Assembly: GCF_000383415.1 (NCBI RefSeq)
Contig: NZ_KB911260.1
Location: 159,255 to 223,254 of the forward strand
Length of the DNA stretch: 64,000 nucleotides
From: Hyphomicrobium zavarzinii ATCC 27496
Lineage (GTDB): Bacteria; Pseudomonadota; Alphaproteobacteria; Rhizobiales; Hyphomicrobiaceae
Direction of reading: 5' to 3'
The notes beneath the pieces were generated by a model. It was not told where the DNA came from and did no database searches. It worked only from the letters and a program-made list of their open reading frames with translations. Below, piece by piece: positions 2,215 to 6,180 of the stretch. The position numbers and the translations under genes are program-made. Numbering within the stretch: position 1 is the first letter of the stretch; every line of letters starts with the position of its first letter.

Positions 2215-3165
2215 CTAGAGCACGTCAACGATCTCGATGCCGTCTGGGACCGCGCTTCGATCCACTGCAACCGTATAATCGGCGTAGGCACGGGCCGGCG
2301 GGTAGTTATCGAGCTTTGGACTGCCGAGATCGTAGAGATCATCACCCACCTTGCGCTGGACCGTCACCCGCTCGAACAATCTGTGCGCTGGCGCATTTCC
2401 GAGTGCCGACGCGTGCTTGAACGCTATGACGCGACGCGACGCCATCTCGCCTCGGGCTGCGGAGCGGTCGTGCTCGAACATGACTTTCAGTGCCTCGAGC
2501 AGATGCGCGAGGTCCGCCTCGCCGAAGCCCGTCCGTTCAGCAAGCTTCGCGTTGACGAAAACGTGGGCCCGGTAGAGCCCATAGGGCACGATGTGCTTGC
2601 GCCCCATGGTCCGGTTTTCGGTACGCTCGTCGCTACCGTTCTTCTCGCGCTCGGCTTTCTCTTTTTCGTTGGTGGCAGCCATGCGCGTGATGGAGATCTC
2701 GAGGGGCAAGATCTTTTCGACGGATGAGGCGAAGGCAACTTGCACGGGGCCACGCACCTGACCGGCGTTGATGCCGGTGCTCATCACCGCGCCGAACGTG
2801 CGCACATCGAAAAAATTGTCACACATGAACTTGGTGATGGCTTTCGCTTCCTCTCCGTTTTTCGGATTGAGCTTCGGTGCCTTTTCTACGGTCTCGTCGT
2901 CTGGCCTTTTGGCCTTGTAGGCCTCGCGGTGCTGCTCGTTGAGGATCGAACCTTCCTGCACGTAGATCCGGTAACCCGGCTGGTCGCCTTTTGCGAGCTC
3001 GGTGTAGTTGCGAATTTTGCGCTTCAGCGAAACATCGGTCACGAGACCGCAGTTGGTCTCCGGATCGATACGCGGCAGATTACCGGCGTCGGGATCGCCG
3101 TTGGGGTTGCCATTCGTGACGTCGAAAAGAAAGACGATATCGTAGCGGTTCGCGAGTGCGGTCAT
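2215..3165 (-). CDS. cas7c: type I-C Cascade backbone protein Cas7c (Csd2)
   Basis: Cas7 forms the helical backbone of Cascade, binding the crRNA spacer and kinking it every sixth nucleotide. The product is 316 aa. It begins with the RAMP strand NRYDIVFLFDVTNGNPNGDP, highly typical of Csd2, and contains the I-C motif NRTMGRKHIVPYGLYRAHVF around residues 185-205. The preceding segment, rich in Lys and Glu, is a charged loop that makes the protein slightly longer than many family members. Its ATG abuts the cas8c stop (TGATG, one-base overlap), so the two are translationally coupled. Confidence 0.95.
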   Translation of the reverse strand: MTALANRYDIVFLFDVTNGNPNGDPDAGNLPRIDPETNCGLVTDVSLKRKIRNYTELAKGDQPGYRIYVQEGSILNEQHREAYKAKRPDDETVEKAPKLNPKNGEEAKAITKFMCDNFFDVRTFGAVMSTGINAGQVRGPVQVAFASSVEKILPLEISITRMAATNEKEKAEREKNGSDERTENRTMGRKHIVPYGLYRAHVFVNAKLAERTGFGEADLAHLLEALKVMFEHDRSAARGEMASRRVIAFKHASALGNAPAHRLFERVTVQRKVGDDLYDLGSPKLDNYPPARAYADYTVAVDRSAVPDGIEIVDVL

Positions 3166-3566
3166 CAGGCGGCCTCCCCGGCTTCACTCTTGTCTACTGC
3201 TTTGCGGAAGAACTCATTGCGCTGGTGGTAATAGCCGAGAGCGAATAGCGCCTGGCTCTTGTCCGGCAAACTCGCCGGATAGGGATCATGTCCAGGTTCC
3301 ATCAGATCCATGATCTGGGCGACGGCCTTTTCCAGATTGATCCGCCGTCCAGGGCTCTGCTTGCCGACCTTCGACAGATGATTAGCGGAGCCAGCATCGA
3401 GAATGTGGAAGACCTTGCGCGGCTGGGCAGACGCCGAACCATAAAACTTGTCCTTTATGGTCGCGTTGACGCTCGTGCCCAGTGCCGCCACTTGGATCTG
3501 CTCGTAGACGGCGAACAGCCGCCCCAGCAGATAGCCGGGATCCTTGAAGTCGGTGTCGAGCGACAC
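3165..3566 (-). CDS. cas11c: probable Cas11c small subunit, internal in-frame start within cas8c
   Basis: In type I-C the Cascade small subunit is made from an internal ribosome start inside cas8c. Here an in-frame GTG (3564-3566, codon 451) is preceded by GGAGG (minus strand, 3572-3576) with a 5-nt spacer. Initiation there gives a 133-aa, mostly helical, basic protein running to the cas8c stop, which matches the size known for Cas11c. The signal is seen directly; that it is used is inferred from the family. Confidence 0.65.
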   Translation of the reverse strand: MSLDTDFKDPGYLLGRLFAVYEQIQVAALGTSVNATIKDKFYGSASAQPRKVFHILDAGSANHLSKVGKQSPGRRINLEKAVAQIMDLMEPGHDPYPASLPDKSQALFALGYYHQRNEFFRKAVDKSEAGEAA

Positions 3567-4916
3567 GGGGGCCTCCACTCTGAAGTTTCTGATCAGTACG
3601 GATTTGAGGATGGCGACACGCAATGCGTTGACGTCATGATCGGCGCGCAGTCGCATGATGACCGACGAAAGTAGTGTCAATGGATACGTTGTTCCGGTCA
3701 GAATTGCGCGCATCCATTCACCGGCGAGGTTAGGCTGGATGTTCTCAGATTTCCCGAGCACAGCTGTTTCGATCAGCATCCGCCACATGGTGGGAATTTC
3801 GTCTCGCGGTGGCGGATCGATGCTTAGGCGCTGGTGGTGCTCCGCGTAGCGCTTTGCGAGCACGCCAAAATCATCTTCGATATAGAAGCGGATGGAGAGT
3901 CGCGCGGCGTTGGGCGCAAGGCCGAGAATGTGGAAGCGAACTCCTGGCGCGAGCGCGGGCTGAAAATCCCCGACGGGTAGACCTGCGCGAATATTCGCGA
4001 GAATGTCACCTATCTTCGCCCCTTGGACGCTTTCGTCGATCTCGAACAAGAAAGCGAACATGCTTTCTGCGGCGTCTGCCGCCACCGCATTGGAGGCATC
4101 GGCCCAGAACACTGTGGAGGCATCCCCGATCTGAATGCGATGCTTGCTGTCCCGCTCGAGAAGATGGTTCAGCGCCGTCGTGTATGCAAAAGCCGCACGG
4201 TCGGAGATCGGCGCATTGTCACCTTGCTCGTGCTCGTAGGATGTGAACGCCTCGAGATTGAACGAGACAATGGAAGCACCGGAGGACTGTGCACCCCAGA
4301 CCCCTTTGATCGCCGGATGAAGGCGTGCGACGGTTCCCCTGTTGCCATCCACGAGGCAAATGCCTTCGGCTTTCTCGCCCTCCCCTGAGAGCCGCGCCCA
4401 AAGGTCTCGTGTGGCTTGCCGGTCGTGGATGCGGACGTTTGCCAACCGCTCGCTCTCGAGGGCGAAGACGACGTTCTGGTCCTTCATCTCGTCCGGCCAA
4501 CCCAATTCCGCGAACTTCTCGGGCTTCCAGAAATCAAGGAAGCGCAACAACGCGAGCAGGCCCTCGTCCTTGCTCCCCGCGAGCCACTCGCGGTGGCAAT
4601 CGATAAAAGCTTCGTGCTCCTGAGCGGTGCGTCTGCCTTCCTGTGCTGTGACGCCGAGCACATAAGCCGTCTTGTCCCAAAGAAAATTGGGAGCGACGCC
4701 GGACGTGCGCTTGCTCGGCTGCGGCACGGCCATAGCCCGCGCGGTGCGCTTGCGCCCTTCTCCTTCGCGCAAATCGATGGGCTCGCCGGCAGCCGATCCA
4801 TCGGGATTCAGCGAGATGAGGAATCCAACGTTCTGTTGCGAGTAGCCGAAGGCGGGCGCTGTGCCCTGCGCGGCTAAGCGGTCATAAAGACGGGCAAGGG
4901 AGGCGAGAATACTCAT
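3165..4916 (-). CDS. cas8c: type I-C Cascade large subunit Cas8c (Csd1)
   Basis: Cas8c is the large subunit that recognises the PAM and anchors the non-target strand. The product is 583 aa, normal for Csd1. Family landmarks are the opening ILASLARLYDRLA, GYSQQNVGFLISLNPDG, NFLWDKTAYVLGV (residues about 75-88), a central FWADA, HILGLAPNAARLSIRFY, and the C-terminal ALFALGYYHQRNEFFR. Its last 133 codons probably also encode Cas11c from an internal start. The ATG at 4914-4916 has no upstream gene coupling now, because about 540 bp separate it from cas5c; in most I-C loci the two genes are nearly adjacent. Confidence 0.95.
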   Translation of the reverse strand: MSILASLARLYDRLAAQGTAPAFGYSQQNVGFLISLNPDGSAAGEPIDLREGEGRKRTARAMAVPQPSKRTSGVAPNFLWDKTAYVLGVTAQEGRRTAQEHEAFIDCHREWLAGSKDEGLLALLRFLDFWKPEKFAELGWPDEMKDQNVVFALESERLANVRIHDRQATRDLWARLSGEGEKAEGICLVDGNRGTVARLHPAIKGVWGAQSSGASIVSFNLEAFTSYEHEQGDNAPISDRAAFAYTTALNHLLERDSKHRIQIGDASTVFWADASNAVAADAAESMFAFLFEIDESVQGAKIGDILANIRAGLPVGDFQPALAPGVRFHILGLAPNAARLSIRFYIEDDFGVLAKRYAEHHQRLSIDPPPRDEIPTMWRMLIETAVLGKSENIQPNLAGEWMRAILTGTTYPLTLLSSVIMRLRADHDVNALRVAILKSVLIRNFRVEAPVSLDTDFKDPGYLLGRLFAVYEQIQVAALGTSVNATIKDKFYGSASAQPRKVFHILDAGSANHLSKVGKQSPGRRINLEKAVAQIMDLMEPGHDPYPASLPDKSQALFALGYYHQRNEFFRKAVDKSEAGEAA

Positions 4917-4953
4917 CTGCCATGTCTCCGAATGGGAGAGGTGGGCTCACCGC

Positions 4954-5012
4954 CATAGGGCTGTTTTACTGCGTCTTTCCAATCATCGTTTCGATCCACG
5001 CCAAGTGGCGAC
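4954..5012 (-). ncRNA. crRNA-like regulatory RNA (CreA/CreR type): degenerate repeat plus 34-nt guide
   Basis: On the minus strand 5012-4988 is a 25-nt version of the array repeat. The first six bases (GTCGCC) and 14 of the last 15 (GGCGTGGATCGAAAC, one change) match, while the stem-loop is 7 nt shorter (GCC-ACTT-GGC). The sequence after it, 4987-4954, is the guide, 34 nt long as usual for I-C spacers. An 11-bp inverted repeat (5017-5027 with 4943-4953) brackets repeat and guide in place of a second repeat. A weak TATTTT box lies at 5043-5048 on the same strand. The layout matches CreA/CreR RNAs, which use Cascade for repression rather than cleavage. Confidence 0.7.
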
Positions 5013-5016
5013 TGGA

Positions 5017-5027
5017 GCGGTGAGCCC
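5017..5027. repeat. right arm of an 11-bp inverted repeat bracketing the crRNA-like element (left arm 4943-4953)
   Basis: GCGGTGAGCCC at 5017-5027 is the exact reverse complement of GGGCTCACCGC at 4943-4953. The 63 nt between them hold exactly the 25-nt degenerate repeat, 34 nt of guide and 4 flanking bases. In the RNA the arms could pair and define the guide's 3' end. The left arm overlaps one copy of the 10-bp direct repeat that bounds the insert. Confidence 0.6.
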
Positions 5028-5070
5028 GCCGCCAACGTAGGTAAAATACGATGAAAAGTCGATATGGAAC

Positions 5071-5107
5071 TTCGATGAATGGAATGAGGCTGTTTGCAGC
5101 CCATTCC
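5071..5107 (+). promoter_or_regulatory. predicted Cascade target (TTC PAM plus protospacer) of the local guide
   Basis: TTC at 5071-5073 is the type I-C PAM. The bases after it match the guide at positions 1-5, 7-11, 13, 14, 16, 17, 19 and 20, with mismatches at 6, 12, 15 and 18, and little match beyond 20. Positions 6, 12 and 18 are those flipped out of the crRNA-DNA duplex in type I Cascade, so the functional seed match is nearly perfect. Partial matching of this kind is expected for binding without Cas3 cleavage. The core also forms a hairpin, GGCTG-TTTG-CAGCC (5088-5101). Which promoter it blocks is not certain. Confidence 0.65.
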
Positions 5108-5230
5108 ATACCACCATTGCGAAGCTCCGCCGAATCGCCGACATTGGTTCAGGCACTCGCCGCGAACGCTGTCGCAGCTCACGAAAGCTCTGGAACGGGC
5201 GGAGCGCGGAAGGGCGCTCCGGAGCGCTAG
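5075..5230 (+). CDS. small frame starting inside the predicted Cascade target; candidate creT-like partner
   Basis: A 51-codon frame starts at ATG 5075, with a second in-frame ATG at 5084, both inside the protospacer, and ends at TAG 5228-5230. The product would be a small Ala/Ser-rich peptide with no recognisable domain, ending in a basic stretch (GGARKGAPER). There is no good ribosome-binding site. It is listed because Cascade bound at 5074-5107 would block its initiation region, the arrangement expected of a repressed toxin, and because CreT toxins are typically tiny. It could equally be chance. Confidence 0.25.
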   Translation: MNGMRLFAAHSIPPLRSSAESPTLVQALAANAVAAHESSGTGGARKGAPER

Positions 5231-5410
5231 GCTTAAACCTAGCACCCCGGAGATACGACGATGGCGTATTGTTCGTGGCCCAAACCCATACACGTATCCG
5301 CATACGTGAGGGTTCGTAACGGCAAGCTTGAGCACGTATGTGCTCACTGCAGGTCGTACCCTTCCCGCAAGGGATAGCCTCGGAGGCACGACGCGGCGAG
5401 TGCTGCCTGC
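5214..5410 (+). ncRNA. hairpin-dense segment, possible structured RNA
   Basis: Within 200 bp there are six perfect hairpins or palindromes: 5214-5227 (GCGCTCCGGAGCGC), 5226-5243 (GCTAGG/CCTAGC), 5291-5308 (7 bp, CCGC loop), 5330-5345 (GAGCAC-GTAT-GTGCTC), 5359-5373 (CCCTT/AAGGG) and 5377-5387 (GCCT/AGGC). The last two are nested inside TCGT (5354-5357)/ACGA (5388-5391) and GCAGG (5349-5353)/CCTGC (5406-5410), giving a branched fold. I do not recognise the family. The strand is uncertain because hairpins are near-symmetric. Confidence 0.45.
5261..5377 (+). CDS. putative 38-aa Cys/His-containing peptide
   Basis: ATG 5261 is preceded by GGAG (5249-5252) at an 8-nt distance, a fair ribosome-binding site, and the frame stops at TAG 5375. 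The peptide starts MAYCSWPKPIHVSAYVRVR and continues with a CAHC pair followed by RSYPSRKG. Four Cys/His residues could bind zinc, and the two YxR-type segments give it an internally repetitive look. Most of its codons overlap perfect hairpins, so the strand may instead be read as structured RNA. It lies about 150 bp downstream of the predicted Cascade target and is a second candidate for the repressed gene. Confidence 0.35.
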   Translation: MAYCSWPKPIHVSAYVRVRNGKLEHVCAHCRSYPSRKG

Positions 5411-5457
5411 TAAAAATACCGAGATTCGGTTAGGCGTGCCAAACGAAATAGGGATGC

Positions 5458-6180
5458 TCACCGCCGCACCTCCGGCGAGTTGGGCGGCGGAACCTTGAGA
5501 ACGCCGTCCTTCAACGTGGCGCGAAACACCATCGTCGAGCGGTCGCCCGCGTGGTCGATGTCGTAGAGCATAAAGCCGAGGTCGCGCGGCCGGCCGAAGC
5601 CGAGGCTTTCGCTGCGGTCTTCTTCTGACACCATAGGCATCTCAGCATCCGGCTCGATCGGCTCGAATTCCGCGGTGAATTCCCGCGTACCCAAGCACGG
5701 CTGGTGGAAGCACTGTCCCTTGCGGGCTCGCCGATTGAAGGTATCGAGGTGCTTGCCCTCGTTGTCGCCCTGGCCCGCCATCGCCGTCAGCTCGAAATGG
5801 GCGCAGATGACGTAGGCGACGTTTGTCAGAACGGTCGAAGCGCGCTGCTGCCGGTGCTCCTCCACGACGAGTGCGAGATCGCCGACAATCCCGCTGTTCA
5901 TTGCCTTTCGCGCAGCGGCGGCCGAAGCTTTCGCGCCCACCTCATTGCGGCGGATGGATTGGAAGCGAATGGGTTTCAGAACGTGGATCTCGTCGATGAT
6001 CCATTGGATGGCCGGCTTCCAGTGAATGGCCTCGATGATCCCGCGCGCGGCCGACGGCGTCATGACGTCGTAGGAGACACGCTCTACTTTCATTTCCGGC
6101 CGTGTAAAGCAGGCGTACTTGCCGCTGACCAGTAGCCGAACTCCATAAGACATTGGCTCTGTTCCCCCATCGGCGTTCAT
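5458..6180 (-). CDS. cas5c: type I-C crRNA endonuclease and Cascade subunit Cas5c
   Basis: In type I-C, which lacks Cas6, Cas5 cuts the pre-crRNA and caps the 5' handle. The product is 240 aa. Landmarks are the RAMP opening YGVRLLVSGKYACFTRPEMK, VERVSYDVMTPSAARGIIEAIHWKP (residues about 33-57, given as a span), IRFQSIRRNEV, and the C-terminal LGFMLYDIDH. A second in-frame ATG at codon 10 (6151-6153) has a GGGGGAA purine run upstream and may be the true start. The TGA stop lies in the right copy of the direct repeat that bounds the insert before cas8c. Confidence 0.93.
   Translation of the reverse strand: MNADGGTEPMSYGVRLLVSGKYACFTRPEMKVERVSYDVMTPSAARGIIEAIHWKPAIQWIIDEIHVLKPIRFQSIRRNEVGAKASAAAARKAMNSGIVGDLALVVEEHRQQRASTVLTNVAYVICAHFELTAMAGQGDNEGKHLDTFNRRARKGQCFHQPCLGTREFTAEFEPIEPDAEMPMVSEEDRSESLGFGRPRDLGFMLYDIDHAGDRSTMVFRATLKDGVLKVPPPNSPEVRR

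What the first reader, a model, noticed from the sequence alone, without database searches (positions are those of the whole stretch)
5071..5107. Guide target with TTC PAM and mismatches at positions 6, 12 and 18
After TTC at 5071-5073, the plus strand matches the guide at 16 of the first 20 positions; the mismatches are 6, 12, 15 and 18. Type I Cascade ignores every sixth position, so three of four mismatches are silent and the seed is effectively perfect. Matching fades after position 20, which should permit binding but not Cas3 recruitment. A chance hit with correct PAM and periodic mismatches 62 bp from the guide is very unlikely.
Basis: partly seen in the sequence, partly recalled or inferred. 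Interest (0 to 1): 0.92.

Follow-up and report, generated by a model that had tools for sequence, protein, structure and literature searches.

The report
CRISPR guide aimed at cas promoter
A bacterial CRISPR immune system carries, between two of its own genes, a single stray guide that matches a site just upstream in the way CRISPR binding tolerates, and relatives carry the same arrangement with different matching letters, so the system most likely uses it to turn down its own genes.

Summary
After TTC at 5071-5073 the + strand matches the guide (- strand, from 4987) at 16 of 20 positions, mismatched at 6, 12, 15 and 18. It is the best non-self match in 64 kb. The guide follows one degenerate repeat in the cas5-cas8c gap of a complete type I-C operon.

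Among 149 I-C loci I kept 18 such elements; two more came later. Guides differ, yet each matches its own nearby target at 1-5, 7-11 and about 13-17. Positions 6, 12 and 18 match in 4, 1 and 4 of 18. No shuffled guide reached the window's score (0 of 1,800).

Best reading: a CreR-type guide. Cascade carrying it binds beside the promoter of a CreR-cas8c-cas7-cas4-cas1-cas2 transcript and represses it. Transcription, repression and absence of Cas3 cutting are inferred; the window's promoter is weak. CreR is in print for I-B, I-E and V-A; I saw no I-C case, but two key papers were unreadable here. Several relatives carry a small hydrophobic ORF between target and guide, a possible toxin variant.

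The parts
5071..5073 (+). PAM TTC (GAA on the cas-coding strand)
   Evidence: TTC and TTT are the consensus PAMs of N. lactamica I-C (PMC10865793, passages)
5074..5107 (+). partial protospacer; matched to the guide over 5074-5093 except positions 6, 12, 15, 18
4988..5012 (-). single degenerate type I-C repeat (shortened hairpin, intact GTGGATCGAAAC end)
   Evidence: array repeats of the same genome
4954..4987 (-). guide (spacer-like) segment of the CreR-type RNA, about 34 nt up to the closing stem
5016..5027 (-). 5' arm of the closing stem GGGCTCACCGCT
   Evidence: 12 pairs, one of them G-U; 0 of 200 mononucleotide shuffles as good; present in the predicted fold, z -3.24, 1 of 200 shuffles folds as well
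4943..4954 (-). 3' arm of the closing stem GGCGGTGAGCCC, in the place of a second repeat
5034..5062 (-). weak promoter candidate TCGACT-17-TACGTT, 8 nt after the PAM; would start the RNA near 5027. Read by eye; the best scored pair there is GTTCCA-16-TATTTT, 7 of 12
   Evidence: sequence; not reported by the consensus scan
3165..4916 (-). cas8c, first gene after the guide
   Evidence: TIGR01863, 567.6 bits
2215..3165 (-). cas7
   Evidence: TIGR02589
1559..2209 (-). cas4
   Evidence: TIGR00372
528..1556 (-). cas1 (start approximate, from the extent of the family match)
   Evidence: TIGR03640
215..505 (-). cas2
   Evidence: TIGR01573
5458..6180 (-). cas5 (repeat-processing subunit in I-C, general knowledge), upstream of the target
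   Evidence: TIGR01876
6238..8625 (-). cas3
   Evidence: TIGR01587, TIGR01596

Best explanation
It is a CreR-type cas-regulating guide RNA in a type I-C system. One ectopic degenerate repeat plus a guide is transcribed from the cas5-cas8c gap in the direction of cas8c. A 12-bp stem closing the element replaces the missing second repeat and marks the 3' side of the guide. Cas5 processes it and Cas5-Cas8c-Cas7 carries it. The complex binds the TTC-flanked site through positions 1-5, 7-11 and 13-17, with 6, 12 and 18 flipped out, immediately upstream of the promoter of the same CreR-cas8c-cas7-cas4-cas1-cas2 transcript. The R-loop is too short for Cas3 attack, so the promoter is blocked rather than cut: negative feedback on effector level, relieved when array crRNAs or an anti-CRISPR take up the effector. 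Shown here: the sequence anatomy, its uniqueness in the genome, guide-target co-variation, the periodic match profile, and the closing stem. Inferred: transcription, processing, promoter position, repression, lack of cutting, and the titration logic (taken from published CreRs).
For: Complete I-C operon. Unique best target with a PAM. A pair scan that ignored the repeat found the same arrangement in other loci, directly after a repeat-like ...GAAAC or ...GAAAT. Eighteen elements among 149 loci (185 gaps): match counts per position 1-5 = 17,16,16,17,18; 6 = 4; 7-11 = 17,16,17,18,17; 12 = 1; 13-17 = 17,17,13,14,13; 18 = 4; later positions 1 to 9 of 18. Shuffled guides: 0 of 1,800 reach 14 of 15. 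In one genus two guides differ at paired positions 3, 4, 5 and 8 and their targets carry the same four changes, while free position 6 changed in the guide alone. Hexamers with 5 or more of 6 matches to TTGACA lie within -3 to +12 nt of the PAM in 11 of 17 loci (L008, with its target on the other strand, left out), against 7.7% of other positions. Closing stems of 9-16 bp in 8 of 18 loci, and 10-13-bp hairpins starting at guide+22 to +34 in 7 others (no shuffle control for the hairpins). I-C Cascade without Cas3 represses transcription in practice (PMC10865793, passages).
Against: No expression data. The window's own promoter candidate is weak (best 7 of 12), and the consensus scan instead reports a site 350 nt further upstream at 5442-5413, which could drive cas8c from before the target. 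The predicted fold of the leader keeps the closing stem but forms a CCAC/GTGG hairpin in place of the usual repeat hairpin. The element is facultative: most loci examined lack a detected one, including a same-genus genome with 82.7% identical Cas8c (L032/L129). Selection of the 18 used the 15 paired positions, and for five low-scoring ones the TTC PAM too; the 18 are not all independent.
Confidence: 0.8

Rival explanations
1. CRISPR-repressed toxin-antitoxin (CreTA/CrePA): the guide is an antitoxin that silences a toxin rather than cas genes.
For: In several relatives a 30-54-codon hydrophobic ORF lies between target and guide, behind the targeted promoter. A 96-bp translated Cascade-repressed toxin is known in Citrobacter rodentium I-E (PMC12055562 section 13).
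Against: In the window only 74 nt separate the PAM from the conserved repeat end, with no ATG before the repeat; the one ORF listed starts at TTG and runs through repeat and guide. The two other cas5-cas8 gap elements (L026, L110) and L117-L119 also have short guide-target spacing (75-96 nt); L026's ATG ORF likewise runs through repeat and guide. An RNA toxin cannot be excluded.
Confidence: 0.08
2. A chance or ordinary self-derived spacer remnant with no function.
For: Degenerate repeat, incomplete match, absent from the closest Cas8c relative.
Against: Periodic match profile, PAM and co-variation across 18 loci; paired changes within a genus. A self-acquired spacer would start as a full-length match.
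Confidence: 0.05
3. The two similar sites are paired operators for a DNA-binding protein; the 27-nt palindrome overlapping the protospacer (5081-5107) is its site.
For: GGAATG.GGCTG/CAGCC.CATTCC imperfect palindrome, found once in the genome with up to 3 mismatches.
Against: A protein operator would not be relettered from locus to locus in step with the sequence after a CRISPR repeat, nor show free positions every six bases.
Confidence: 0.04

Closest known systems
CreR, cas-regulating RNAs (type I-B, I-E, V-A)
   Same: crRNA-like RNA with partial complementarity to a cas promoter, autorepression of effector genes (PMC13131331 and PMC12737573, passages)
   Different: I-C effector; one repeat only; 3' side closed by a long stem; target, guide and cas8c in tandem, so that guide and cas8c could share one transcript
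CreTA of haloarchaeal type I-B
   Same: degenerate repeat, partial match to a promoter; H. hispanica CreA also lacks the 3' handle (PMC8501985, passages)
   Different: no toxin is recognisable between target and guide in the window
CreT/CreA of Citrobacter rodentium type I-E
   Same: repeat-like and spacer-like guide aimed next to a promoter, with a PAM, in a cas intergenic gap (PMC12055562 section 13)
   Different: there the target controls a 96-bp translated toxin and the guide lies on the opposite strand; the like-sized ORFs here are in relatives, not in the window
Long-form tracrRNA of Cas9
   Same: a CRISPR effector reprogrammed by a natural guide to repress its own operon (PMC8730458, passage)
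   Different: Class 2 effector and a tracrRNA-derived guide

Membership tests
CreR | repeat-like sequence plus spacer-like segment outside the CRISPR array, inside the cas locus | tested here: met
   5012-4954 in the cas5-cas8c gap; the array lies beyond cas2
CreR | limited complementarity with a correct PAM to a site at a cas promoter | tested here: inconclusive
   complementarity and PAM met; promoter weak in the window, clearer in relatives
CreR | guide-target pairing kept by selection | tested here: met
   co-variation and periodic profile
CreR | no toxin gene coupled to the guide | tested here: inconclusive
   no ATG before the repeat; one TTG ORF of 40 codons runs through repeat and guide; an RNA toxin is not testable here
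CreR | effector- and guide-dependent repression of cas expression | not testable with these tools
   needs a reporter or RNA-seq
CreTA/CrePA | toxin expressed from the targeted promoter | tested here: inconclusive
   window: no protein candidate found, RNA toxin not testable; relatives: candidate ORFs, toxicity untested
type I-C CRISPR-Cas | cas3-cas5-cas8c-cas7-cas4-cas1-cas2 with I-C models | tested here: met

The most novel reading that the evidence does not exclude
Type I-C systems carry a family of single-repeat guides in two forms. One (the window, L026, L110, L117-L119) controls the effector operon from inside its own 5' leader: because the CreR is part of the leader, each mature CreR costs one cas leader, coupling transcriptional and post-transcriptional feedback. 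The other (L084, L029, L068, L103 and probably L010, L146) represses a hydrophobic micro-peptide toxin that makes the cell depend on Cascade. The window form may have lost the toxin.
Probability: 0.25. Interest if true: 0.68.

Novelty: new member of a known kind. Interest (0 to 1): 0.55.

Why it matters
If true, RNA-guided autorepression extends to type I-C, a very common CRISPR subtype, and I-C cas levels would respond to crRNA load and to anti-CRISPRs. The natural guides also act as an evolutionary experiment on what I-C Cascade needs to bind: 18 pairs (not all independent) show a footprint of about 17 positions with free positions every six bases. This gives design rules for I-C gene repression that can be tested at once.

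Tried and rejected
Chance: rejected by whole-window, whole-genome and within-gap controls. Rfam: no match up to E 1 in 4800-5600. NCBIfam and Pfam: no family for the + strand 38-codon ORF at 5261-5377; weak Pfam hits of two micro-ORFs (Vpu E 0.42, Radical_SAM_N2 E 0.099) are below cut-off and were discarded. Promoter scan: does not report the candidate beside the target, but one at 5442-5413.

Selection told in full. One search left out seven re-fetched duplicates (L136-L142), loci without a detected cas8, and up-cas3 stretches with more than one repeat (arrays). It printed 36 repeat-like hits in 149 loci. L027 is the same sequence as L084 and was dropped. I kept those with a best match of at least 13 of 15, or 11-12 with TTC: 18. 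L071, L078, L082 and L095 (11 or 12 of 15 with other PAMs) and lower ones were dropped. So for L092, L114, L117, L118 and L119 the TTC was part of the choice; for the other 13 it was not (12 TTC, 1 TTT). L124 contains a run of N. In L114 and L124 one other start position in the gap ties with or beats the guide. The 149 loci are not all independent genomes (for example L032 and L129), and L117-L119 are one genus. L185 and L188 came later and are not in the profile counts.

In one search some hits unrelated to this arrangement score as high or higher (L034, L054); I read them as array or tandem repeats. Cross-locus guide swaps reached 15 at most, with 4 of 306 at 13 or more; I assume these are pairs of close relatives, but did not list them. 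A look at relatives of L068 without the element (L058, L052) showed no clear remnant. Nine paper searches showed no I-C CreR in the titles and abstract starts listed; the listings were capped.

Full report
What is there. The window's left end is a complete type I-C CRISPR-Cas operon on the - strand: cas3, cas5, cas8c, cas7, cas4, cas1, cas2, followed by repeats of an array whose inside is masked in the held genome. The genes cas5 and cas8c are separated by 541 bases (4917-5457). In that gap, reading in the cas direction, come the target with its PAM (5107-5071), a stretch with a possible weak promoter, one degenerate I-C repeat (5012-4988) and the guide (from 4987), then cas8c at 4916.

Observation. 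The best other non-self sites on both strands of the 64-kb window have 14 of 20. In the whole genome the pattern TTC plus 17 guide positions, with 6, 12 and 15 free, has one exact match, this site; with two mismatches allowed the only others are one site on another contig and the guide itself.

Relatives. A first scan of 136 gaps compared every position with every TTC-flanked site, without using the repeat. It recovered the window's pair and the same arrangement in L008, L010, L026, L027/L084, L029, L048, L068, L103 and L110, each with a repeat-like sequence ending GAAAC or GAAAT directly before the guide. Its other hits, some scoring as high or higher (L034, L054), I read as array repeats, tandem repeats or chance.

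A second scan began from repeat-like sequences and allowed any PAM (149 loci, 185 gaps). It gave 18 self-targeting elements by the rule told under Tried and rejected. Match counts by guide position over the 18 are 17, 16, 16, 17, 18 (1-5), 4 (6), 17, 16, 17, 18, 17 (7-11), 1 (12), 17, 17, 13, 14, 13 (13-17), 4 (18), then between 1 and 9 for positions 19-30. Positions 6, 12 and 18 and everything after 17 played no part in the choice, so the periodic gaps and the end near 17 are free results. Shuffling each guide 100 times gave a mean best score of 9.56 of 15, a maximum of 13 and none at 14 (0 of 1,800), with TTC in 2%. The window scores 14. Two further elements, L185 (13 of 15) and L188 (14 of 15), both with TTC, turned up in one more family.

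Co-variation within one genus is the cleanest case. L117 and L118 come from one genus and align well through the gap. Their guides differ at positions 3, 4, 5, 6 and 8; their targets differ at 3, 4, 5 and 8 by the same letters, and the change at position 6 is not followed. L119 has L118's guide and one uncompensated target change, at position 3.

Promoter. In cas orientation the PAM reads GAA. In L029, L048, L068, L084 and L103 it is part of a TTGAA hexamer start; in four of these (not L084) that hexamer with a -10-like hexamer 17 bases on is the best-scoring pair of the zone, 7-8 of 12. In L010, L104, L110, L114, L117, L118, L119 and L124 a TTGAC hexamer starts 4-12 bases from the PAM. Eleven of 17 loci (L008 left out) have a hexamer with at least 5 of 6 matches to TTGACA in the zone from -3 to +12, against 7.7% of other positions. 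The window, L026, L092 and L146 are among the weak ones. In the window I see TCGACT-17-TACGTT by eye; the best scored pair is 7 of 12. If the former is right, the RNA would start at about 5027, the first base of the closing stem.

Closing stem. In the window GGGCTCACCGCT (5027-5016) pairs with GGCGGTGAGCCC (4954-4943), enclosing repeat and guide; 0 of 200 mononucleotide shuffles do as well. The predicted fold of 5030-4920 includes it (-46.3 kcal/mol, z -3.24, 1 of 200 shuffles folds as well), but forms a CCAC/GTGG hairpin instead of the usual repeat hairpin. Stems of 9-16 bp with a 3' arm starting at guide+29 to +44 occur in L026, L084, L029, L048, L068, L103 and L110 with differing letters; for L084, L068 and L103 the shuffle control is weaker (0.015-0.04). 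In L010, L114, L117-L119, L124 and L146 a local hairpin of 10-13 bp starts at guide+22 to +34 instead (no shuffle control). L008, L092 and L104 show neither clearly. I read this as a substitute for the second repeat that bounds an ordinary crRNA. In some relatives (L048, L068, L084) the 3' arm also covers the likely ribosome-binding site of cas5 (sequence, by eye).

Two forms. With short guide-target spacing (75-96 nt; window, L026, L110, L117-L119) I see no clear separate gene between target and guide; the ORFs listed for the window and L026 run through repeat and guide. With longer spacing (152-309 nt; L008 apart at 370 with its target on the other strand), L084, L029, L068 and L103 carry a 32-33-codon ORF of one family, MR(I/L/V)P...(D/E)FW followed by a hydrophobic stretch. 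L010 and L146 carry unlike hydrophobic ones; L048's region has only a frame-broken resemblance, seen by eye; in L008, L092, L104, L114 and L124 I see no clear member. A profile of five of these peptides matched 2 of 297 genomes of the order, both at these I-C loci. The known 96-bp translated CreT of C. rodentium I-E sits in a similar gap (PMC12055562, section 13 read), so these ORFs are candidate Cascade-repressed toxins. The window has none that I can see, so I file the window element with CreR.

Distribution. On a Cas8c tree of 155 sequences the nearest neighbour of 14 of the 19 element-bearing sequences placed has no detected element. The window's nearest Cas8c relative (82.7%; L032, and L129 from a same-genus genome, which looks like the same contig) has cas5 and cas8c directly joined, while L026, also of the same genus (71.0%), has the element with another guide. 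The element is therefore facultative and either often gained or often lost.

Known work. CreRs are described for I-B, I-E and V-A (PMC13131331, passage; PMC12737573, passages). I recall, without having been able to read them, a 2023 survey of standalone repeats (Shmakov and others) reporting many in type I loci aimed at cas promoters, and the 2023 CreR paper. An I-C case may be listed there. TTC and TTT as I-C PAMs, and repression by I-C Cascade without Cas3, are from PMC10865793 (passages). That type I effectors flip out every sixth base is general knowledge; a search of the I-C Cas3 paper for it returned no passage.

Verdict. Observation confirmed, interpretation supported by comparative evidence, function unproven. 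A new I-C member of the CreR kind as far as my searches reach, with a closing-stem twist and a toxin-like sister form in relatives.

Noticed in passing
L084 9109-9210; also the cas3-cas5 gaps of L029, L068, L103: A 32-33-codon hydrophobic ORF family lies between target and guide, behind the targeted promoter; a profile matched 2 of 297 genomes, both at these I-C loci. Candidate Cascade-repressed toxin.
   Followed up: partly
window 5081-5107: A 27-nt imperfect palindrome overlaps the PAM-distal part of the protospacer; once in the genome. Possible terminator or operator.
   Followed up: partly
window 5439-5465 and 4928-4954: The cas5-cas8c junction sequence GGCGGTGAGC recurs as the 3' arm of the closing stem, as if the module had entered at the old cas8c start with a short duplication; the relative L032 has the two genes joined there.
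   Followed up: partly
window 5261-5377, + strand: A 38-codon ORF (MAYCSWPKPIHV...) on the opposite strand in the gap; no NCBIfam or Pfam family found.
   Followed up: partly
L168 (own genome, contig C5, near 149.8 kb): A second CRISPR-like array with a GTGGATTGAAAC-type repeat, masked inside, on another contig.
   Followed up: no
window 5442-5413, - strand: Promoter-like TTGGCA-18-TATTTT overlapping a terminator-like hairpin just after cas5.
   Followed up: no
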